Numbered from the stretch's first letter, positions 26,929-37,163 are shown. The stretch is DNA of 64,000 nt from Candidatus Thorarchaeota archaeon (GCA_029855935.1 JAGSHN010000005.1:62001-126000), one strand, 5' to 3'. The notes: generated by a model not told the origin, from the letters alone. Numbers and translations: made by a program.

Positions 26929-29900
26929 CTACCTAACACTAATGTAACCTAGATTTTCCCCTACTCGTACACCAGATATGTGCGGTATTTCGGGCCTTGC
27001 TAACGCGAAACACCTCATGCGTTGATGATCCGGCCATATCCACGATTCTTCACGACGAAGATAGAGCAGGATTTCGGCTAACTTGTTCTTTGAGAACCTG
27101 CGTAGTGATGCCAAATCAAGGGGATGATCCTCAAAGAAGAACTCAAAGATCTTCCCCCAATCACGGGTTGTCACAGGATAGACGTGACTATGATCTTCAA
27201 TCAAGAGGGCAATCGGTGTGCCGGTTTCGTCTTCAAGCAGACGTACCGGCAGTGTTCTATTGCTCGCAGTGTGTGCGGCCTCCAGTTTCTTTAGTAAAGG
27301 ATTTCCTATGCTCACGAAGTCATCATCAACGGGATCGACACTTACCCGCTCGCCCTCGATCTCGACTGTTGATTTGCTCTCAGACCTAACAGCCAGCCCA
27401 GACTGCACCGCAGCCCGCTCAATGACACGAATGAGATGAGCATACGGCGACTTGTCAATAATAGTTTGAACATCTTTCGAGTCGGCATGGAGGATCTGGT
27501 TCTTCCTGTATTCTGCCCTTGCACGTTCTATCTCTTCCAATGTGAGATTCACTATGGGAACCCTGCCATCTGCAAGCGATGAAATGACTCGCTTCTGCTG
27601 ATCAGTGAGTATTTCGGGAACTTGGCCCACGACAGCCCTGAAATCGGTTCTCCTATCTTCTAGGACTCTGTACATCCTCTCTTCAATCGAATTCGGATAG
27701 TATAGGTTTATCAAATAGACATCTTTGGCCCTCTGTCCGAGCCTGTCAACTCGTCCAAACCGCTGGAACAGCATAGCGGGGTTCCAAGGCACATCAACGT
27801 TTACCACTTCATTTGCATAGTGAAGATTCAATCCCTCGCTTGCTGCATCGGAACAGACAAGGACCCTTATCGACCCCCTCTTCAGCAAGCTAACGATGTC
27901 CTTTGGGGAACATTCGTGCAGTATTGGCCTTGTCCCATCCCATGCATAGGTCCCGACACACTCGCCATCGTATCGGCCCACCCCAAAAGTGTCCACGAGC
28001 ACTCCAAGCATCTCGATGATGGCGTCGGTCGTCGAAGTGTACCTGCTAAACACAAGAACTTTTCTGCCTCGTGAAACGTGGTCTGACAAGATCTGCCTCA
28101 ACCCTGTCATTTTCGGGTCCACCAATTGGCCACCGCTCTGAAACGCACGTTCGATTAAGTCCAAGATTCGTTGAACTGCGTAAAACTCCGTTTTGGCCCT
28201 TTGGACTGAAACGTTGCTTAGTTCACCATTGGAGGCGTCCATATCGTACTCAAGGTCGCTGTCCAGTTCGTTTTCACGTTGATCGTTTCCAGTCAACGGA
28301 GAGAAACAACCACGATCTACGATTGACTGAAGATACTCTTTTCTGCGCCGCAGTGTGTCAACTGCGGCTCTGATTGAAGAAACAATCCTTTGCCTATACA
28401 AGCTTCGCACAAGCCCAGTCCTGTTTCCATAGTACGACTCTGCATAAGCGAGATGTCTGCTGACGAAGTCCTCAAGTTCTTGGAGGAACTCTTCCTGCTC
28501 CTTGGTGACATTGATTCGTGGACTATACAAGTGGGGAGTTGGAAAGCGGTATCCAATGCTAGATAGGGTTATTCTTTCGCTCCTTACTGCCAAGAACGTA
28601 GCGGGATGTGTGGCAATCACAACTTCTTCTGGCAACGGCCGTACTTGCCGTGCAATCGTTTCATAGAACTTGGTATCTTTGTCGCATTTCTCAGTGGAGA
28701 AGCACTCAAGAGGCCCCACCAGACCGTGTCTTTCGCCCAGTTCATATTCTTGGGCAAATTGATGAATATATCTGAGGTGAGTTACTACAGTGCTCAATAC
28801 ACCGTGTGGGATTTCGCCTCGAAACCACCTTGAATAGTAGTCCAGTGCCTCTTTGAAGCCCTCAGGGACACCAAGGATATCTAACAGGGAGTAGTAGTCC
28901 ATGATGTTCGTCTGGTAGGGCGTAGCTGTGAGGAGAAGGATATGCGGGATATGCCTCTGCATATCTTTCAGTAGTTTGTATAGCCGTGTTGACCGCCCGT
29001 CTGAAGTGTCATCATGAATCCTGGCGTGATGCGCCTCATCAACGACGAGAAGGTCTGGCATATCTTCCAGATCAAGTTGGGGATTGCTTCGTGAATCACC
29101 TCTTAGCCAGTGCCAAGACATGATCAGCAGATTAATTCCGTTATCGCAACGGAAGGGCTTTCTCCCTACTTGTATTGAGTCCAGATCGGTTTGACAAGTC
29201 TGGGTTCTCGAGTCATATACCCAGAAGTTCAGGCCAAATAATTTCTTCAGTTCCTGCTGCCATTGTTTCATAAGAGAAGCTGGTGTGAGTATGAGAACGC
29301 GACGGACACCGCCGAAACGCAGCAGATAATGGATGATAGACCCAGCCTCAATCGTCTTGCCTAGTCCAACTTCATCCGCAAGAAGAATCCTGATTGGCCA
29401 TCTGCTTAGAGCTTGGACATACGCGTGGATTTGGTGCGGTAGCAAGCCCACATAAGGAAACGCAAGCGCACAATAAAGAGGTGAGCGCGAAACCGCGTCC
29501 GCGAAAGAGGCCCAAGAGATCCAATCTTGTCCCTCATTACTGTCAGTGCGTGCTTCGATGGGGGCGTGCTCAACCATTTGTGTTGCGGTGGAGCCGACTC
29601 TGTTTTTGCGAGATGTCAAAGCATGGTTGTATTCATCAACTACAGCACAGAACTCGTCCGTAAAAGGCATGGTTTCAACATCAGAACTTACGCAGTTCCA
29701 CATCTCCTCGAAGCGCTTCAAGAAGTATTCGCTTACTTCTCGCTCATGCGGAATCCAAGAGCGGTGCAGAACAGCATCTTCAATATTCTTTGTAAGACCC
29801 CTTACCGACTCGTTCACAGACCCAGTTATGACAGAATATCTCAGCCCTTGTCGGCGCCTTAGAGAGAGAGACTGGTAGTACCGTCTACCAGCCCAGCTGA

Positions 29901-30468
29901 ACAAGCGCCAGATCTTCGATCGTATTTGCCGAGGCTCTCTATCGTTGCCCTCATGATGGATTACCATGAACTTGGAATGGAACAGGGCAACTTCGGGATT
30001 GGGCCAAGTGCCATGTCTTTGATAATAGTCTATGTTAGCCCTTGGCGTTACCAGTCTAACCTGCATGGCATGTTGATTGAACATCTCCCGGAGTACTGAT
30101 AGAATGTCACCGCTCTCTTGACCAAGAAGAGTCAAGAGTTCTTCTGTATATCCTCTCAGAGCCTCTGCGACTGCTCTCTTTACAGCATCTGTGACTGTGA
30201 GGCCGGGCCGGAGAGCAGGTACAACGGCCTTTGACTGGTGAAAGCCAACAATCAATCTTACGAAGCCACCTCGTTTCCAAATCGCAGCCAGCTCCCGGAG
30301 CAAAATGAGAAGCGAGTAGGGATCATAGAATGATGTGACACGGTCGTACTGATAACCTTCCCGCAAAAGAGGCCCGATCATTCTCCTATAGATCTCTTCT
30401 CCACGTCCACTAATGGCCCGATACGGGGGACCTGATGTCATCGGATGTAGACCCCCAGCTCTATACAT
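26929..30468 (-). CDS. PLD-domain SNF2 (SWI2/SNF2) helicase, defence-type
   Basis: 1179 residues from ATG 30468. The N-terminal third is a phospholipase-D-like domain: FHSKFMVIH (HxK kept, but the last residue of HxKx4D is His) followed by ITGSVNESVRGLTKNIE. Then an SF2/SNF2 helicase: DEVGLGKT (motif I), LLVVDEAHH (II), LLTATPYQTN (III), KVLVFSRYTSTTDAI (IV), SDAASEGLNL (V) and FQRFGRVDRLGQ (VI). Such proteins occur in anti-phage and restriction-like operons (established for the families). The start overlaps the upstream gene by eight bases; a TTG 11 codons earlier is possible. It is the last gene of a three-gene operon with a MORC-like ATPase. Confidence 0.92.
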   Translation of the reverse strand: MYRAGGLHPMTSGPPYRAISGRGEEIYRRMIGPLLREGYQYDRVTSFYDPYSLLILLRELAAIWKRGGFVRLIVGFHQSKAVVPALRPGLTVTDAVKRAVAEALRGYTEELLTLLGQESGDILSVLREMFNQHAMQVRLVTPRANIDYYQRHGTWPNPEVALFHSKFMVIHHEGNDREPRQIRSKIWRLFSWAGRRYYQSLSLRRRQGLRYSVITGSVNESVRGLTKNIEDAVLHRSWIPHEREVSEYFLKRFEEMWNCVSSDVETMPFTDEFCAVVDEYNHALTSRKNRVGSTATQMVEHAPIEARTDSNEGQDWISWASFADAVSRSPLYCALAFPYVGLLPHQIHAYVQALSRWPIRILLADEVGLGKTIEAGSIIHYLLRFGGVRRVLILTPASLMKQWQQELKKLFGLNFWVYDSRTQTCQTDLDSIQVGRKPFRCDNGINLLIMSWHWLRGDSRSNPQLDLEDMPDLLVVDEAHHARIHDDTSDGRSTRLYKLLKDMQRHIPHILLLTATPYQTNIMDYYSLLDILGVPEGFKEALDYYSRWFRGEIPHGVLSTVVTHLRYIHQFAQEYELGERHGLVGPLECFSTEKCDKDTKFYETIARQVRPLPEEVVIATHPATFLAVRSERITLSSIGYRFPTPHLYSPRINVTKEQEEFLQELEDFVSRHLAYAESYYGNRTGLVRSLYRQRIVSSIRAAVDTLRRRKEYLQSIVDRGCFSPLTGNDQRENELDSDLEYDMDASNGELSNVSVQRAKTEFYAVQRILDLIERAFQSGGQLVDPKMTGLRQILSDHVSRGRKVLVFSRYTSTTDAIIEMLGVLVDTFGVGRYDGECVGTYAWDGTRPILHECSPKDIVSLLKRGSIRVLVCSDAASEGLNLHYANEVVNVDVPWNPAMLFQRFGRVDRLGQRAKDVYLINLYYPNSIEERMYRVLEDRRTDFRAVVGQVPEILTDQQKRVISSLADGRVPIVNLTLEEIERARAEYRKNQILHADSKDVQTIIDKSPYAHLIRVIERAAVQSGLAVRSESKSTVEIEGERVSVDPVDDDFVSIGNPLLKKLEAAHTASNRTLPVRLLEDETGTPIALLIEDHSHVYPVTTRDWGKIFEFFFEDHPLDLASLRRFSKNKLAEILLYLRREESWIWPDHQRMRCFALARPEIPHISGVRVGENLGYISVR

Positions 30469-31171
30469 CTTCGAGTAGGTCAAAATGTCTGTATTCGTCA
30501 AGGAAATCTTTGACTATCGCAACCGCTTCGGGGTATTCTTTCTGTAACGCAGGTGAGGTAAACACGCCAAGGCCGAGTTCAAAGTCGTGAATTATTGCAC
30601 GTTCCAACCACATCAGTTGGGACTCCGAAGCATCATGCCTCTTTATGGTCATTAGCAGTGATCGAAAACGCTTCGTAATGGTGCCATTGACAATATCCTT
30701 GTCCTTGAGTAACGAACTTACAGCGGCCCAGTATTCCCTGTCGATCCGATCATATAGGTCACGGATGCGTAATCTCCAGTTACCATTCTCTACAAAATCA
30801 ATGATATTGGAGAGAGGTCGTTCCCCCTTCAACAAGTCATCAAGATGCTCGTAGACAACGGTGCGAACCACCGGATGCAGCAACATTAGTGTTCGAATAA
30901 CTCCCGTGTCCAGGTTCTTTTCAAGCAAGATTCGTCGCTCATCATCACTACACTTACGCAATTCGAAATACATCCGAACAATCTGGGGCGGTACGGCAAA
31001 CGCTTGCGACAGAAAGTGTTCATTTGGCAGCCCGCCATGGGAGGTGTGAAGGTCATATCCCATCTCAATGACCCGATCTTCAAACGTGTGCAGCCGTTCC
31101 AGTATGGACTTGCTGTCATCCATCAGACCGTAGGGATCCCGAATGTGGTCAGTCGTCAACCTCACCCCCAT
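30461..31171 (-). CDS. Unrecognised ~236-residue middle gene of the MORC/SNF2 operon
   Basis: A soluble, helical, charged protein with no domain that I recognise; no catalytic motif, zinc cluster or membrane segment is evident. It overlaps the MORC-like gene upstream by 23 bases (if ATG 31171 is the start) and the helicase gene downstream by eight bases, so it is translated as part of the same unit. ATG 31126 is another possible start (221 residues). Notable segments are LERLHTFEDRVIEMG, LHPVVRTVVYEHLDDL and FELGLGVFTSPALQ. It may be an adaptor between the ATPase and the helicase (inference). Confidence 0.8.
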   Translation of the reverse strand: MGVRLTTDHIRDPYGLMDDSKSILERLHTFEDRVIEMGYDLHTSHGGLPNEHFLSQAFAVPPQIVRMYFELRKCSDDERRILLEKNLDTGVIRTLMLLHPVVRTVVYEHLDDLLKGERPLSNIIDFVENGNWRLRIRDLYDRIDREYWAAVSSLLKDKDIVNGTITKRFRSLLMTIKRHDASESQLMWLERAIIHDFELGLGVFTSPALQKEYPEAVAIVKDFLDEYRHFDLLEDV

Positions 31172-32768
31172 AAAGGGTTGCGTGCCACTTATTACGCAGC
31201 GACAAGGCATAGTTGGGATCCACTGCCATCTCATTTACTAGACAGAAATATAGTGAGTCAACAATCGCCCAATTTACGATAAGACACGATATTTTCTCAT
31301 CACCTTCACGGACTGCCCATTGCCAAAGCGCGGAGGCCGTATTCACAAAGACACACATTTCGTCGGACTCCGGCCTATAGCTGTATTCCCAGAACAATGA
31401 GGGGTCATCGTATTGCGTCTGGGCTACTGAAATCAGCAGCCGACGACTATCGTCAATCGGGACACAGTTCGTAGTGTCAACATCTCCACCCGCCGCAGTT
31501 TCAGAAAAGTCCTGAGAGAGTAAGGATACGGCTTGTTTCGCGGCGCGCCTGAGACCTTGAATGATCTTGCGTGACTTTGCCCCTCCGTCGGTCGATGCAC
31601 GATACTCCTTTGACGCTTTCAACATCCGCTCAAGGATTGGCTGTAGTGCTCTCTGTGCGTCCTTCCACGACTGCAGCTCCGTATTCCATCCGACCTTCGT
31701 AAAATTAGGATCACACATGTCGAGGTGTACCTCGCCGTGTAATCGGGCATATGTTGGATGTGGTCTCTTTGGCAGTAGCCCGTTCTCATCAGGACCAGCC
31801 TTGTGAAATGCTTCGACCAATTGCCCCTTGCGAAATGTGTGGATACCCCAGAGACCAGAACCCGAGGCACTCGTCTGACGAAGAGCCAGCCAGCCCCTTA
31901 TTTTCATAGGTTCTCCTCGCTGTCCGCCCCCATAGTCTGGACGGGCCACTAGGTCCAGTTTGTCGAGAATGACCTTTGTTCCCGGTACAATAGGAATTTC
32001 GTCTGGCTCACAAGGAGCTAGTTCCCGCTCATTTCCTGAACTGTTATCAACAATAATTATCTTGATGTTATGATACTTGATCTCAGGCGAGAAATTTCGG
32101 CCGAGTTCTTCTCTCCATATCTCAGGCCTATGATGACGCTTGTGAAGATGCTCAATACGGATGTACGTACCGCTCTCTAGGCTGCCAAGAGGTCCACCAA
32201 GATCCGGTTCCTCGGAAACGCGGCCAATGATGCTGCCTAACTTCAAATGTCCGTTCTCGATTTCGTGGGTATCAATCTCTATCGAACTCTCCGTTCCATC
32301 TATAAGCGATCTAGTGCGGATCGCAAATTTCCAGCCAAGACCAAGAATCCCAACTTTCATACCCATTCCGTACATTCCCTTTCGGGACCGGAGGGGTATC
32401 CTCCGCTCATCAGAGGCGCCCCTAAGACGGAGAGCCATCTCCAGCTCGTCCAGTGTCATACCGATACCATTGTCCCAAACCTCAATGCTGTCGCCGTTAT
32501 ACCGTATCTTGATGACAGTTTCGGCGGGGCCAGCATCAATCACTCTGCGATATCGCCTGACGAATTCTTTGACATCAGGAACACCACGTTCCATATCCTC
32601 TTTGATGCGCAGGATCTCGTCTGCGCTGGGCCTTCGCCAGTCCAAAGCGTTTGCTACAAGCTCGGACAGGCATTGCACCACGCCAATATTTAGGGCTCCA
32701 ACTCCACGAGGTGTGAAGATCCTATCATCGGCCGTGATGTCGAGCTCCCGTTCTTTGAACCCCACCAT
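31149..32768 (-). CDS. MORC-like GHKL ATPase
   Basis: 539 residues. The Bergerat ATP-binding fold is clear: ELVANALD at 36-43 (N box), DNGIGM at 99-104, and the glycine lid RKGMYGMGMKVG ending near 140. After it comes an S5-like domain whose segment GIHTFRKGQLVEAF ... GEVHLDMCDPNFTKVGWNTELQSW follows the pattern of MORC proteins. Prokaryotic MORCs were proposed to act in restriction-type operons with SNF2 helicases (Iyer, Abhiman and Aravind 2008). ATG 32768 lies just after a TATA-like box, so the mRNA is nearly leaderless. The C-terminal 150 residues are unassigned. Confidence 0.9.
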   Translation of the reverse strand: MVGFKERELDITADDRIFTPRGVGALNIGVVQCLSELVANALDWRRPSADEILRIKEDMERGVPDVKEFVRRYRRVIDAGPAETVIKIRYNGDSIEVWDNGIGMTLDELEMALRLRGASDERRIPLRSRKGMYGMGMKVGILGLGWKFAIRTRSLIDGTESSIEIDTHEIENGHLKLGSIIGRVSEEPDLGGPLGSLESGTYIRIEHLHKRHHRPEIWREELGRNFSPEIKYHNIKIIIVDNSSGNERELAPCEPDEIPIVPGTKVILDKLDLVARPDYGGGQRGEPMKIRGWLALRQTSASGSGLWGIHTFRKGQLVEAFHKAGPDENGLLPKRPHPTYARLHGEVHLDMCDPNFTKVGWNTELQSWKDAQRALQPILERMLKASKEYRASTDGGAKSRKIIQGLRRAAKQAVSLLSQDFSETAAGGDVDTTNCVPIDDSRRLLISVAQTQYDDPSLFWEYSYRPESDEMCVFVNTASALWQWAVREGDEKISCLIVNWAIVDSLYFCLVNEMAVDPNYALSLRNKWHATLYGGEVDD

Positions 32769-32798
32769 CTGAAACCAACCAGTTAGTTACAATTGTCT

Positions 32799-32808
32799 AT
32801 ACATATCT
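32799..32808 (-). promoter_or_regulatory. TATA-like box for the MORC/SNF2 operon
   Basis: The minus strand reads AAAGATATGT, about 31 bases before the MORC-like start codon. It is the only convincing promoter for the three overlapping genes, supporting a single transcript. Confidence 0.45.
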
Positions 32809-33050
32809 TTCTTCGACATACTTGGTACTCTGGCTTCTCCAGGCCAACACGGACTGAACGGAAACTTTGCATCATCATTCGAAGAGTGATCGTGCCGCAT
32901 TGGCAGTCAAATGTAGGAGAGTTAGGTGCCTCACTCAACGACCCACTCAACCCCTACCCTAGTTTGTGGGCCTCATGGGACCATTGGGATTGTGTTTGAA
33001 GCACTACTTGGAATTTTAGGGTCAGAAACTCGCCCAAGCCTCTATGGATC

Positions 33051-33440
33051 CTAGCTAGGGTCCTCAACCTCAACCTCGATGTCACGTATGAAGAACTCCT
33101 TACCTCCAATGATCTCTGTGGCACTGCTCCCACAACGCGGGCATTTCATTGGGGCAAAGACGGCGAGTTCAGGAGGTAGGCTCGAATCAGACTGGCTCTC
33201 ACCCTCGAACCCGCAATCCTCGCATTTCAGGCGACCAGGTACAGGAACTATGTTCAATTCAGCGCCCTCAAGGAGCGTATTCTGAGATGCGATTTCGAAG
33301 TTGAATTTCAGCTGTTCGTGAACAAGGAATGTAAACTCCCCCACCTCAACATTGACACGATTGACCCGTCTTACAGGATGCTCCTGTAGTGCACTGAGTG
33401 CTAGCTCTACCAAGGACATTACTGCCGCAAGCTCGTGCAT
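33051..33440 (-). CDS. hypA: Hydrogenase nickel-insertion protein HypA
   Basis: Nickel metallochaperone for [NiFe] hydrogenase, working with HypB. 129 residues; the N-terminus MHELAAV carries the nickel-binding His2, and the zinc site uses C73, C76, C100 and C103 (CEDC and CPRC). The zinc loop is longer than in bacterial HypA, as in other archaea. It lies between the MORC operon and the Dam gene, far from hypE. A perfect palindrome sits 29 bases upstream of the ATG. Confidence 0.94.
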   Translation of the reverse strand: MHELAAVMSLVELALSALQEHPVRRVNRVNVEVGEFTFLVHEQLKFNFEIASQNTLLEGAELNIVPVPGRLKCEDCGFEGESQSDSSLPPELAVFAPMKCPRCGSSATEIIGGKEFFIRDIEVEVEDPS

Positions 33441-33468
33441 TTTGACATCGAAAAGAGTACAAAAGATA

Positions 33469-33480
33469 TTGCATATGCAA
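33469..33480. promoter_or_regulatory. 12-base palindrome upstream of hypA
   Basis: TTGCATATGCAA is perfectly self-complementary and lies in the hypA/dam divergent region, overlapping the likely hypA TATA region. It could be an operator, for example for a metal-responsive regulator (inference). Confidence 0.35.
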
Positions 33481-33560
33481 CTTGCGATATGAGCTAAGCG
33501 TATCGGTGACTGGAAAGAGTGGACTTATCAGGATAGATCTGCAAAGTTAGATCGAGTTGC

Positions 33561-34418
33561 ATGAGAGGTCCTGTACCGCGTCCCATCGTCAAATGGGCTG
33601 GAGGCAAGGCTCAGCTACTTCAGGAGCTGGAGGATAACCTTCCAGCCTCATTCGGTACGTACTATGAGCCTTTCTTTGGTGGGGGCGCACTCTTCTTTCA
33701 TCTCTCAGCCAAAGGAGTAGTGAGGCGGGCAATCCTTTCAGACCTTAATAGAGATCTTATGAATCTCTACACGGTGGTAAGAGATAATGTAGGGGACCTG
33801 ATTACAGAACTGGCATCAGGGAAGTACAAGAACGAGAGAGATGTCTACTACAAGATCAGAGGAGAGGAGCCAACAGACCCCATCAAGAGAGCTGCAAGAT
33901 TCATCTACTTGAACAAGACCTGCTACAACGGACTGTACCGTGTCAATGCTGCAGGGAAGTTCAATGTCCCGTTTGGCAGATATCGAAATCCCAAGATCCT
34001 AGATGCGGAGAACCTGAGAGCTGCGAGCCAAGCCCTGCAGAGAGCCAGACTATTGATTTCCGATTTTGAGGATGCAGTGCGTTCAGCCAAGGCAGGAGAC
34101 CTTGTGTACTTCGATCCGCCGTATGACCCAGTGAGTGACACAGCCGACTTCACATCATATACAGAGAGAGGGTTCGGAACCGAGGAGCAGAAGCGTCTTG
34201 CAAGAGTATTCAGAGAGCTTGACGAACGGGGTTGTTTCGTACTTGAGAGTAATTCATCCACCGAGTTCATCACGAGGCTGTATTCAGACTATCACATCGT
34301 ACAGGTGTTTGCGAAAAGAGCAATAAGCTCCGACGCCTCCACAAGGGGGCCCATCCAAGAGCTCATAATAAGAAACTATGAGATCACCACCCCCCAGACA
34401 CGCATTGATGAGTTCTAG
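33561..34418 (+). CDS. Dam-type (D12 class) DNA adenine-N6 methyltransferase
   Basis: Adds a methyl group to adenine N6 in a short DNA site; many relatives act on GATC, but the target here is not known. 285 residues: IVKWAGGKAQLL (SAM-binding, residues 9-20), YEPFFGGGALFF, FIYLNKTCYNGLYRVN, GKFNVPFGRY and the catalytic DPPYDP at 185-190. ATG 33561 follows AGATCGAGTTGC with no strong SD. It is divergent from hypA, and its end overlaps the convergent second methylase by four bases. No cognate restriction enzyme is fused to it. Confidence 0.94.
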   Translation: MRGPVPRPIVKWAGGKAQLLQELEDNLPASFGTYYEPFFGGGALFFHLSAKGVVRRAILSDLNRDLMNLYTVVRDNVGDLITELASGKYKNERDVYYKIRGEEPTDPIKRAARFIYLNKTCYNGLYRVNAAGKFNVPFGRYRNPKILDAENLRAASQALQRARLLISDFEDAVRSAKAGDLVYFDPPYDPVSDTADFTSYTERGFGTEEQKRLARVFRELDERGCFVLESNSSTEFITRLYSDYHIVQVFAKRAISSDASTRGPIQELIIRNYEITTPQTRIDEF

Positions 34419-35917
34419 GTCCGCTTGTGATAGATGAGGAGATAGTCATGAGTGATACTGAGAGGGGCCATGGGAGAGGTCGGTACTGGCGGATTGTCAT
34501 TAGCCACAACCACAATTTCGCGAATATCGAGTGCTGGAATGGGCTCTCGCCAAACTTCAAGGGCAGGGCTAACAGTCATCCCGTCTATCCTGAAGTCACG
34601 AGTGTGAATGACGAGATGACCTCCAGGAGCGACCCGCTGGATGCCGTGCCGGATGGCCATTCGAAGCGCATCCACATATTTCCTGATGCTTGAGGGGAGA
34701 ATGGACTCCATAGATGATGACTTGATATATACTAAGTCGACTGGGAACTCATCTGGTTCAACGCAGTTTCTGATAGACGGAGAAACCACAATCTCTAGAG
34801 TATCGGAGTCGCCCCCATATCGATAAGTAACATTCTGATCCATCAGAGAGGACTTCTCTGTACAAGGGAGAATCCAAGTCGTCTTACACTCGACCACAGG
34901 GGGCTCCAGGTGGGTGGAAATGTAGCGATAGTTGATCCCCACATCCTGTCGCATTTCATCCGGGATGAGTGAAGTAGTTGGAGGCACAGTAGGATGGGAT
35001 TTCACGAACACAGCTAGATATTCGTGGGATAGTAGAAGGAAATTATGTTTCACACTGCGGGAATACCAGAAGCCAGTTGTACGACAGTTATGTTGCCGCT
35101 TGATTATCAGATCCTTGAGAAGAAAGCCTTCCCGGAGAAATGTTTCGATTGTCTGAAAGCCCAGAGGCACAACGTGTCGGTGTTTGCGGAGATCCCCAAT
35201 CAGAATTGCAGCATGCCCCAAGGATTTCAAGACGCGATAACATTCTCCAGCCACCACCTTCATACTCTCGACGAATGCGGTGGGATCCTGAAGCGATAGG
35301 TCGTTCTCAATACCTGATGTATACCGGACAATGTTGGCGTAGGGCGGATGTGTGCAGATCAGGTCAACGGTCCCGTCATCAATACAACGAAGGTCAAGCG
35401 CGTCACCGACCTCTACACAGGGTTCGTACGTCGTTGGCGGTGTTTCACTTGTCAGCGTCGTCTGCATAGCGTGGCCGAAGTCCAAGTTCTTCCTCGTAAG
35501 AAGAATCGCAGCAGGGTTTATGTCCAAGGCGATGCACCTTCGTCCTAGAAGCTTGGCCTCTATGGCGGTGGTTCCTCCACCACAGAACTGGTCTAGGACG
35601 AGGTCACCCGGGGAACTGTATCGCAGAATTATGTTTCTTGGAATGTAGGGGGACCAATTTCCCCGATAATTCCCGGAATGTGTCGCCCATTTGCCGCGTT
35701 GTCTGAAGCTCCACACGGTGGTGGTTTCCAAGTGAAAGTCCTTTGGAGCGTAATGAGTGATCTCCTGTGGTCGGAAGAGATTGAGATTAACACCTGTCTT
35801 CTCAATTATGGCCAGCTCAATCTCTCGAAGACTTACCGAGAACTTGCTCATTATCGCCTCATCAGACATCCCGCGCATCTTGGCGGCAAGAATCTCGTCA
35901 CTGAGGCTGCGGCTCAC
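34415..35917 (-). CDS. N4/N6-type DNA methyltransferase with degenerate second half
   Basis: 500 residues. An N-terminal helix-turn-helix (about 5-45) precedes SAM motif I DQFCGGGTT at 109-117, ALDINP, and the catalytic HPPY at 190-193, in the order motif I then motif IV. The region from HPPY to about residue 320 looks repeated at 385-500: VDLVYIKSSSM in place of VDLICTHPPYA, a helix with the same spacing, PGGHLVIHTRDFR matching LGHAAILIGDLRK, and a shared ending HEYLAVF/HDYLLIY. The repeat lacks the PPY, so it is probably non-catalytic. GTG 35917 is the start. Confidence 0.88.
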   Translation of the reverse strand: MSRSLSDEILAAKMRGMSDEAIMSKFSVSLREIELAIIEKTGVNLNLFRPQEITHYAPKDFHLETTTVWSFRQRGKWATHSGNYRGNWSPYIPRNIILRYSSPGDLVLDQFCGGGTTAIEAKLLGRRCIALDINPAAILLTRKNLDFGHAMQTTLTSETPPTTYEPCVEVGDALDLRCIDDGTVDLICTHPPYANIVRYTSGIENDLSLQDPTAFVESMKVVAGECYRVLKSLGHAAILIGDLRKHRHVVPLGFQTIETFLREGFLLKDLIIKRQHNCRTTGFWYSRSVKHNFLLLSHEYLAVFVKSHPTVPPTTSLIPDEMRQDVGINYRYISTHLEPPVVECKTTWILPCTEKSSLMDQNVTYRYGGDSDTLEIVVSPSIRNCVEPDEFPVDLVYIKSSSMESILPSSIRKYVDALRMAIRHGIQRVAPGGHLVIHTRDFRIDGMTVSPALEVWREPIPALDIREIVVVANDNPPVPTSPMAPLSITHDYLLIYHKRT

Positions 35918-35993
35918 TTCCTGTTCACCCGACTGCTAGCTAGGTGAAACGCGAGTCTGATTAACACCACGCTTTCTTCACGATACCCAACCC

Positions 35994-35999
35994 ATATAA
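35994..35999 (+). promoter_or_regulatory. TATA box for the NucS-like nuclease gene
   Basis: ATATAA lies 36 bases before the ATG at 36036. GGGGAG, nine bases before the ATG, is a plausible ribosome binding site. Confidence 0.4.
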
Positions 36000-36035
36000 C
36001 TGACGGGATCCAATAAGAAAGAGAGGGGAGAAACA

Positions 36036-37163
36036 ATGGAGGAAGAGGCAGAGGCGGGTGTCTTCGTCACCCTCTACGACCGGGAAACTCTTGAGATCTA
36101 CCTCAAGAACGGTGTATACGGGACGTTGATGCCTCCAGTTGACGGAATGACGCTTTCCCGCACTAGACATTTTCATACTCTCGGAGACTATTCATGCCTC
36201 CGTGGAGGTATGCACTTGTTCTTCTTCTTGAAACGGTTCATAGTCTACGGCGGGCGTATCAAGGGATCTAAGAAATACGGGGCGTTCTATTTGAATGGCA
36301 TGCAGAGCCCACTGGGAAAAGCGGCAGAGGCGCCATTGGTGTGGGACGAGTCAAATAGAAGTAGATATACACCAACCAGTGAAGAAGGGCTCTTCGAAGT
36401 ACCAGATGCTGGCCGACGCTGCCAGCCGTACTTGGTTCTGTTTGATGATGATAGTGGACTGAGAGGAAGAAAAATCCGGTCTGATGAACTCTATTTCAAA
36501 CTAGGGAGATTTCCATATCCACTACCCTCAAACTCTATCCAGGGAATGAGCTTCTGCGTTCTCACACCTGGTGAAACTGACATACTGTTGGATCTCATGA
36601 ACATGAGCGATGAGGTAGTCGACTATGCGAAAAGCCAAGAAATGAGGCTCGAAGACACGCCCACACCATTTCATCCAAAATGGGGAATTGGCAGTGTGAA
36701 GGAGGCGTACGAAGCTTACGAACTCTTGAAACAGAGGCATAGAGGTCGTGAAACAGAGGCCTTACTACGAGGTGACGTGCTCATAAATGAGGCGCATCTG
36801 GAGGCATCTGTTTTGGCCAACCCTGAACTGCTTCCCAGGGAGATGCAACCGCGCAACCATACTCTTAGCAGGCAAGTTCCTATCTCACCCTTCAAACCGT
36901 TTCAAATGGATAGAGCGGACATCTGCTACTATTCAAGAGAGGCCCCCATCGGCAATGGCACTTTGCCTAGTGTCATCATCGAATTGAAGATGAAGCAGGC
37001 AGGCAAAGCAGAAGTGGAGCAAGTCGAACGCTATCTGGATTGGCTATTCTTAGTTAGGCCAGAAGAGGCACGCCAAGTTCGTGCATTTCTGTATGCTCCA
37101 ATGTTTTCAAGAAGAGCTGAGGTAACGAAACATAGGGGACAGGTCAACCTCATTACCTTCTAG
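36036..37163 (+). CDS. NucS/EndoMS-like nuclease with novel N-terminal region
   Basis: 375 residues. The C-terminal third matches the NucS (DUF91) nuclease fold: NEAHLEASVLANPELL, then RADI with D295, IELKMK with E316 and K318, and EVEQVERYLDWL with Q329, the spacing of a PD-(D/E)XK active site. NucS proteins are usually about 230-250 residues and cut mismatched or branched DNA. The first ~245 residues are unlike the NucS N-domain; GGMHLFFFLKRFIVYGGRIKG at 57-77 vaguely recalls PUA/EVE-like modified-base readers (weak inference). It is divergent from the methylase. Confidence 0.8.
   Translation: MEEEAEAGVFVTLYDRETLEIYLKNGVYGTLMPPVDGMTLSRTRHFHTLGDYSCLRGGMHLFFFLKRFIVYGGRIKGSKKYGAFYLNGMQSPLGKAAEAPLVWDESNRSRYTPTSEEGLFEVPDAGRRCQPYLVLFDDDSGLRGRKIRSDELYFKLGRFPYPLPSNSIQGMSFCVLTPGETDILLDLMNMSDEVVDYAKSQEMRLEDTPTPFHPKWGIGSVKEAYEAYELLKQRHRGRETEALLRGDVLINEAHLEASVLANPELLPREMQPRNHTLSRQVPISPFKPFQMDRADICYYSREAPIGNGTLPSVIIELKMKQAGKAEVEQVERYLDWLFLVRPEEARQVRAFLYAPMFSRRAEVTKHRGQVNLITF

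What the first reader, a model, noticed from the sequence alone, without database searches (positions are those of the whole stretch)
26929..32768. MORC-like ATPase / unknown protein / PLD-SNF2 helicase operon
Three minus-strand genes overlap end to start (23 and 8 bases) and share one promoter. Seen directly: Bergerat ATPase motifs with a MORC-like S5 segment, a helical unknown protein, and a single-chain PLD-like plus SNF2 helicase. Prokaryotic MORCs were proposed to work with SNF2 helicases in restriction-type operons (Iyer, Abhiman and Aravind 2008), but I know of no characterised defence system with exactly this composition; DISARM and BREX core genes are absent and the Mza type uses a Z1 rather than an SNF2 helicase. 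Inference: a DNA-entry or phage-defence machine in which MORC clamps DNA and the helicase/PLD arm translocates and cuts.
Basis: partly seen in the sequence, partly recalled or inferred. Interest (0 to 1): 0.85.

Follow-up and report, generated by a model that had tools for sequence, protein, structure and literature searches.

The report
Three-gene archaeal DNA defence operon candidate
An Asgard archaeon carries a compact, mobile three-gene operon (a MORC-type ATP-driven DNA clamp, a probable DNA-binding protein, and a helicase fused to a nuclease-like domain) that recurs as a unit in other archaea and is most likely an undescribed variant of a known kind of antiviral restriction system.

Summary
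The operon is real: MORC-type GHKL ATPase (32768..31149), 236-aa protein X (31171..30461) and PLD-SNF2 helicase (30468..26929), minus strand, overlapping by 23 and 8 bp. Catalytic motifs are intact. It is a lower-GC insertion between S8e and hypA, absent from six relatives. Among 228 Asgard genomes the ATPase and X occur in exactly the same three, in the same order. A diverged version lies on a Haladaptatus plasmid directly upstream of drmABC-like (DISARM) genes. The trio helicases form one clade, distinct from DUF499/DUF1156-associated (Type-2 BR) helicases but in the same PLD-SNF2 family, which also includes PbeA. X is no longer quite unknown: its predicted fold and a profile comparison point to a ParB/Noc-like helix-turn-helix. 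All trio ATPases carry Gln where the MORC signature has Arg, so strict MORC membership is not met. Best reading: a restriction-type defence operon in which X binds DNA, the ATPase clamps it, and the PLD-SNF2 protein translocates and cuts or blocks. No defence phenotype is shown. Related operons (MORC plus SF2 helicase; PLD-SNF2 plus another ATPase) are published; I found no description of this combination. New variant of a known kind.

The parts
31149..32768 (-). MORC/paraMORC-like GHKL ATPase with S5 segment, 539 aa
   Evidence: Pfam HATPase_c_3; profile best PDB hits MORC3/MORC4; motifs; homologues in G027, G103 and Haladaptatus
30461..31171 (-). protein X, 236 aa, probable ParB/Noc-like HTH DNA-binding protein
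   Evidence: AF2 + Foldseek; hhalign against ParB HTH with shuffle control; conserved in G027 and G103
26929..30468 (-). PLD-like + SNF2/RapA-type helicase, 1179 aa
   Evidence: Pfam, NCBIfam NF042964, PDB RapA, tree
33561..34418 (+). Dam-family adenine methyltransferase, possible self-marking partner (separate insertion)
   Evidence: TIGR00571; 43% to Dam beside the G103 trio
34415..35917 (-). N6/N4 DNA methyltransferase, possible partner or separate RM gene
   Evidence: PF01555; 48% over 254 aa to L023:179-1156
36036..37163 (+). 375-aa protein with weak NucS C-terminal (nuclease-like) match; probably not part of the trio
   Evidence: PF01939 0.0017, NF003270 1.3e-6
33051..33440 (-). hypA, resident gene between the two insertions
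   Evidence: PF01155; adjacent to S8e in six relatives

Best explanation
A horizontally mobile, restriction-type antiviral operon. Shown: three overlapping genes with intact catalytic motifs, conserved as a unit in distant archaea and sitting in a defence hotspot. Inferred: X, a ParB/Noc-like HTH protein, binds or nucleates on DNA. The MORC-type ATPase dimerises on ATP binding and closes around that DNA. It thereby loads or licenses the PLD-SNF2 subunit, which translocates on the invading DNA and cuts it with the PLD domain, or stalls its replication. The host would be spared by adenine methylation from nearby methyltransferases (Dam and/or the N6/N4 enzyme) or by a topology or state cue. Defence function is likely; the step order and the self-mark are the weak links.
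For: Same order in Thor-type G000 and G027 and in Heimdall-type G103; ATPase and X strong hits in the same 3 of 228 Asgard genomes; positional trio on a Haladaptatus plasmid directly upstream of drmABC-like genes. Empty sites in six relatives; GC3 0.51-0.54 against 0.59-0.66 in flanking genes other than hypA. Helicases of this PLD-SNF2 family are the proposed effectors of Type-2 BR (PMC12839542), and PbeA is part of a proven antiviral system (PMC6459918). MORC/paraMORC genes mostly sit in RM-type operons with SF2 helicases (PMC2292703). X ParB-like. Dam and N6/N4 methyltransferase families shared by the window and L023 islands.
Against: No phenotype data. The X/ParB link is not significant by Foldseek E-value (0.27) or by the Pfam ParB HMM. 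The methyltransferases lie in a separate insertion on the other side of hypA, so they may belong to another system. The PLD motif lacks the usual Asp five residues after the HxK lysine, so nuclease activity is unsure. Only four loci were found, and Haladaptatus X is not detectably homologous to X by profile comparison.
Confidence: 0.55

Rival explanations
1. The trio is a Pbe-like system that blocks viral replication without cutting: the PLD-SNF2 protein translocates or loops DNA and the MORC-like ATPase clamps it, in place of the SMC-like PbeC. The PLD domain need not cut.
For: PbeA has PLD + Res + Helicase_C and acts without cleavage; PbeA profiles match the helicase (6.7e-29 window, 4e-59 Haladaptatus); MORC and SMC proteins are both DNA clamps (established knowledge).
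Against: No phosphorothioation gene was recognised in the island; ATPase and small proteins are unrelated to PbeB-D; PLD_Helicase and DrmD profiles score higher than PbeA.
Confidence: 0.25
2. The trio is an accessory arm of a larger system (DISARM or a methyltransferase-based RM) and does not work alone.
For: Directly upstream of drmABC-like genes in Haladaptatus; near Dam and the N6/N4 MTase in the window and in G103.
Against: No drm genes beside the trio in the window or in G103; methyltransferases and trio are separate insertions in the window.
Confidence: 0.15
3. A housekeeping or repair operon (chromatin compaction, recombination or mismatch-type repair) rather than defence.
For: MORC, ParB-like and SNF2 proteins all have chromosome-maintenance relatives; SMC-ScpAB lie upstream.
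Against: Present in only 3 of 228 Asgard genomes, plasmid-borne in Haladaptatus, lower GC3, empty sites in relatives.
Confidence: 0.05

Closest known systems
Prokaryotic MORC / paraMORC restriction-type operons (Iyer, Abhiman and Aravind 2008, PMC2292703)
   Same: GHKL+S5 ATPase beside an SF2 helicase, methyltransferases and nucleases; a few of those helicases carry an N-terminal HKD (PLD) domain
   Different: The 2008 HKD cases are on Rad25-like helicases; the SNF2 operons carried HNH or EcoRII nucleases. No ParB-like third gene is described in the text read. The MORC Arg signature is Gln here
Type-2 BR systems (DUF499-DUF3780-DUF1156 N6-MTase-HKD/SNF2 helicase; PMC12839542; NCBIfam NF042964/NF042963; PADLOC PLD_Helicase)
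   Same: PLD-SNF2 helicase of the same family; an ATPase plus a small protein plus adenine methyltransferase logic
   Different: No DUF499, DUF3780 or DUF1156 gene here; ATPase is GHKL; helicase falls in a separate clade and scores 254 bits against a cut-off of 1100
PbeABCD (Haloterrigena jeotgali, PMC6459918)
   Same: PLD + helicase protein (PbeA), an ATPase and small proteins in one archaeal cassette; proven antiviral
   Different: Pbe ATPase is SMC-like AAA; depends on Dnd phosphorothioation; two small proteins of 66 and 152 aa; no dnd-type gene was recognised in the window's defence island
DISARM
   Same: SNF2 helicase (DrmD-like matches) and PLD domain as a theme; the Haladaptatus trio directly precedes drmABC-like genes
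   Different: No drmA, drmB or drmC beside the window trio; PLD is fused to the helicase; extra GHKL ATPase and X
Mza (MutL-like ATPase, Z1, DUF, AIPR)
   Same: GHKL ATPase in a defence operon; weak MzaB profile match
   Different: Z1 helicase and AIPR absent; SNF2 instead
Hma (HmaABC; Payne 2021, PMC8565338; treated as Type-1 BR in PMC12839542)
   Same: Helicase, methyltransferase, ATPase theme
   Different: ATPase is DUF499, not GHKL; the window ATPase has no HmaC match

Membership tests
MORC family (Iyer 2008 definition) | GHKL domain with four ATP-binding motifs plus S5 domain with conserved basic residue | tested here: met
   Motifs and FTK lysine conserved; profile best PDB hits MORC3 and MORC4. 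Single-sequence search finds no MORC
MORC family (Iyer 2008 definition) | GhXhhpXXRhl motif in S5 | tested here: not met
   All five trio-type ATPases have Q in place of R (GIHTFRKGQLV, GLNLYRENQLV); ATPases in L028, L022, L033, L029 and L030 have R. Filed as MORC/paraMORC-like
Type-2 BR system | HKD-SNF2 helicase | tested here: met
   PLDc_2 + SNF2 + Helicase_C; NF042964 E 2.9e-75 but below cut-off
Type-2 BR system | DUF499 ATPase, DUF1156-type N6-MTase and DUF3780 in the locus | tested here: not met
   None among the trio and three neighbouring genes by Pfam; the window MTase is N6_N4_Mtase with only a weak NF042963 hit (6e-6)
PbeABCD | PLD + Res/helicase protein PbeA | tested here: inconclusive
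   PbeA profiles hit (6.7e-29 window, 4e-59 Haladaptatus) but PLD_Helicase or DrmD profiles score higher
PbeABCD | SMC-like PbeC and dnd phosphorothioation genes | tested here: not met
   The ATPase is GHKL; no PbeB, PbeC or PbeD profile among the hits shown for the six proteins scanned. The rest of the genome was not scanned for dnd
DISARM | drmA helicase, drmB DUF1998, drmC PLD | tested here: not met
   Absent among window genes 26929-37163; present beside the Haladaptatus trio
Mza | MzaB ATPase with Z1 helicase | tested here: not met
   NF041932 12.8 bits against cut-off 850; no Z1 match among the trio and neighbours. Hymenobacter L022 shows a GHKL-Z1-dcm operon for contrast
Hma | HmaA/HmaB/HmaC | tested here: not met
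   Helicase hits HmaA at 2.8e-48, one of many SNF2 hits; no HmaB or HmaC in the rows shown
ParB/Noc-like HTH (protein X) | ParB DNA-binding helical fold and sequence profile | tested here: inconclusive
   Foldseek prob 0.9+ to many ParB/Noc chains but E 0.27 or more and TMq about 0.3; hhalign 22.0 against shuffled maximum 19.0; PF17762 HMM negative
Functional antiviral system | Protection against virus or plasmid | not testable with these tools
   Needs plaque or transformation assays

The most novel reading that the evidence does not exclude
A distinct archaeal immune system in which a ParB-like protein nucleates a MORC-type ATP-gated DNA clamp that loads a PLD-SNF2 motor. It would be the third pairing of this PLD-SNF2 effector with an unrelated ATPase (DUF499 AAA+, SMC-like PbeC, now GHKL), and would show that the clamp or loader part of such systems is exchangeable.
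Probability: 0.35. Interest if true: 0.75.

Novelty: new variant of a known kind. Interest (0 to 1): 0.57.

Why it matters
Prokaryotic MORC-like ATPases have been predicted since 2008 to act with helicases in restriction systems; a minimal three-gene unit makes that testable in a haloarchaeal host. It suggests that one helicase-nuclease effector is reused with different ATP-driven DNA loaders, which would link the BR, Pbe and MORC-type systems. It adds a candidate defence system to the Asgard archaea, the closest known prokaryotic relatives of eukaryotes. The trio ATPases lack the MORC-defining Arg, so they are poor direct evidence on the origin of eukaryotic MORCs.

Tried and rejected
IMG/VR scans with the ATPase, X and both helicases: no trio. 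Phage collection with the ATPase: only a weak hit. I could not reach haloarchaeal genomes through the genome search. AF2 of the ATPase: mean pLDDT 50.6, not used. X against Haladaptatus X by hhalign: not significant, so that link rests on position, size and neighbours. Haladaptatus X against ParB: 2 of 200 shuffles reach its score, not claimed. PF17762 search did not find X. Direct repeats at insertion ends: none of 9 bp or more. Membership of Type-2 BR, Pbe, DISARM, Mza and Hma rejected. Methyltransferases as integral operon parts: not claimed, since they form a separate insertion.

Full report
Observation. Pfam gives HATPase_c_3 for the first, nothing for X, and PLDc_2 + SNF2-rel_dom + Helicase_C for the third. 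All GHKL motifs, the S5 lysine, the PLD HxK and GSxNE residues and the SNF2 motifs are present.

Genome and site. The genome is an Asgard archaeon. Two other genomes with the trio are titled Thorarchaeota HM6_B34 (same family) and Heimdallarchaeota HM7_B34 (same phylum). In six relatives from the same genus or family, ribosomal protein S8e and hypA are neighbours without the trio. In one congeneric genome, G001, S8e-hypA-GGR carries neither the trio nor the methyltransferase block. So two insertions flank hypA here: the trio on one side, and Dam + N6/N4 MTase + NucS-like on the other. GC3 is 0.51-0.55 in both inserts, against 0.59-0.66 in flanking genes other than hypA (0.54). G001 carries a PLD-DpnI_C protein and an unknown gene upstream of S8e, so the locus looks like a defence hotspot. 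No direct repeats of 9 bp or more mark the ends.

Conservation. The ATPase at high score is found in 3 of 228 Asgard genomes, and X in the same 3 (two further X hits at E above 0.001 are not credible). If placed independently, identical sets of three have probability about 5e-7 (my calculation; it ignores phylogeny). Identities to the window are ATPase 60/56%, X 50/44%, helicase 45%. The window-to-G027 divergence is nearly as large as that to Heimdall, while core proteins within the family are mostly 65-88% identical, which fits horizontal transfer. In G103 a second, truncated ATPase lies nearby, with Dam divergent and directly upstream of the trio. On the Haladaptatus DYSN1 plasmid the order ATPase-227 aa-PLD helicase recurs, followed at once by drmA-, drmB- and drmC-like genes and, further on, two cytosine MTases.

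Helicase. A 14-sequence tree puts the window, Heimdall and Haladaptatus helicases in one clade (95/95), an Asgard helicase (G219) as sister (100/99), and helicases from DUF1156 loci (most with DUF499 too) elsewhere. G219 has a convergent methyltransferase beside it that reads like a DUF1156 protein (by eye). NF042964 matches at 2.9e-75, but 254 bits is far from the cut-off of 1100. PbeA profiles also match.

ATPase. The A1 profile finds MORC3 (1.4e-5) and MORC4 ahead of HtpG, topo VI and MutL; the single sequence does not find MORC. The S5 motif of MORCs, GhXhhpXXRhl (PMC2292703), has Gln for Arg in all five trio-type ATPases and Arg in five other prokaryotic relatives. I therefore call it MORC/paraMORC-like.

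Protein X. No library hit. The AF2 model (pLDDT 73) has 13 helices. Foldseek against the PDB returns ParB/Spo0J/Noc chains for the top 26 ranks (prob 0.93-0.99, E 0.27-1.2, TMq about 0.3). Pfam HTH_ParB does not find X. Taken together: probable, not proven.

Mechanism. Established family knowledge: GHKL ATPases of this type dimerise on ATP and can clamp DNA; SNF2/RapA proteins translocate on duplex DNA; PLD domains can be nucleases (as in BfiI). Inferred: X binds DNA, the ATPase closes on it, and the PLD-SNF2 protein is loaded and cuts or blocks. PbeABCD is the caution: a PLD-helicase of the same family, antiviral, but viral DNA stays intact. Self-sparing by adenine methylation is plausible because Dam (43%) and N6/N4 MTase (48% over 254 aa) recur in the window and G103 islands, but the separate insertion argues for caution.

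Known systems. Iyer 2008 describes MORC with SF2 helicases, including a few HKD-fused Rad25-like ones. Type-2 BR, Pbe, DISARM, ARMADA, Mza and Hma each share parts. None contains GHKL + ParB-like + PLD-SNF2 in the text or profiles I could read. Two papers on Asgard and archaeal defence do not mention MORC. The library holds open-licence papers only, so absence from it is weak evidence.

Verdict. A genuine, mobile three-gene archaeal defence candidate; new variant of a known kind; interest 0.57.

Noticed in passing
L089:1269-2036 (-), G001:C19: PLD nuclease domain fused to a DpnI_C (Dam-replacing HTH) domain, beside a 235-aa unknown protein (441-1148), in the same hotspot of a sister species: candidate m6A-directed restriction gene.
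   Followed up: partly
L023:5135-6259 (+), G103: Second, truncated copy (374 aa) of the MORC-like ATPase upstream of the full trio, among Dcm, Vsr, HNH/MutH and PDDEXK_11 genes.
   Followed up: partly
window 34415-37163: N6/N4 methyltransferase divergent from a NucS-C-like protein: may be its own two-gene restriction-modification pair.
   Followed up: partly
L021/L025 (NZ_CP120471.1 131491-143358): MORC-like trio directly followed by drmA-, drmB- and drmC-like genes on a Haladaptatus plasmid: a possible composite with DISARM.
   Followed up: partly
L071, G219:C14: Asgard PLD-SNF2 helicase sister to the trio helicases, followed by a 174-aa unknown protein and a convergent DUF1156-like methyltransferase (identified by eye): an odd BR-like locus.
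   Followed up: partly
L090:3638-7037, G008:C144: In another relative the hypA-GGR gap holds about 3.4 kb of different genes, again a variable site.
   Followed up: no
L104:620-1982, Thermus aquaticus p61: A ParB gene overlaps the start of a type ISP restriction-modification gene.
   Followed up: no
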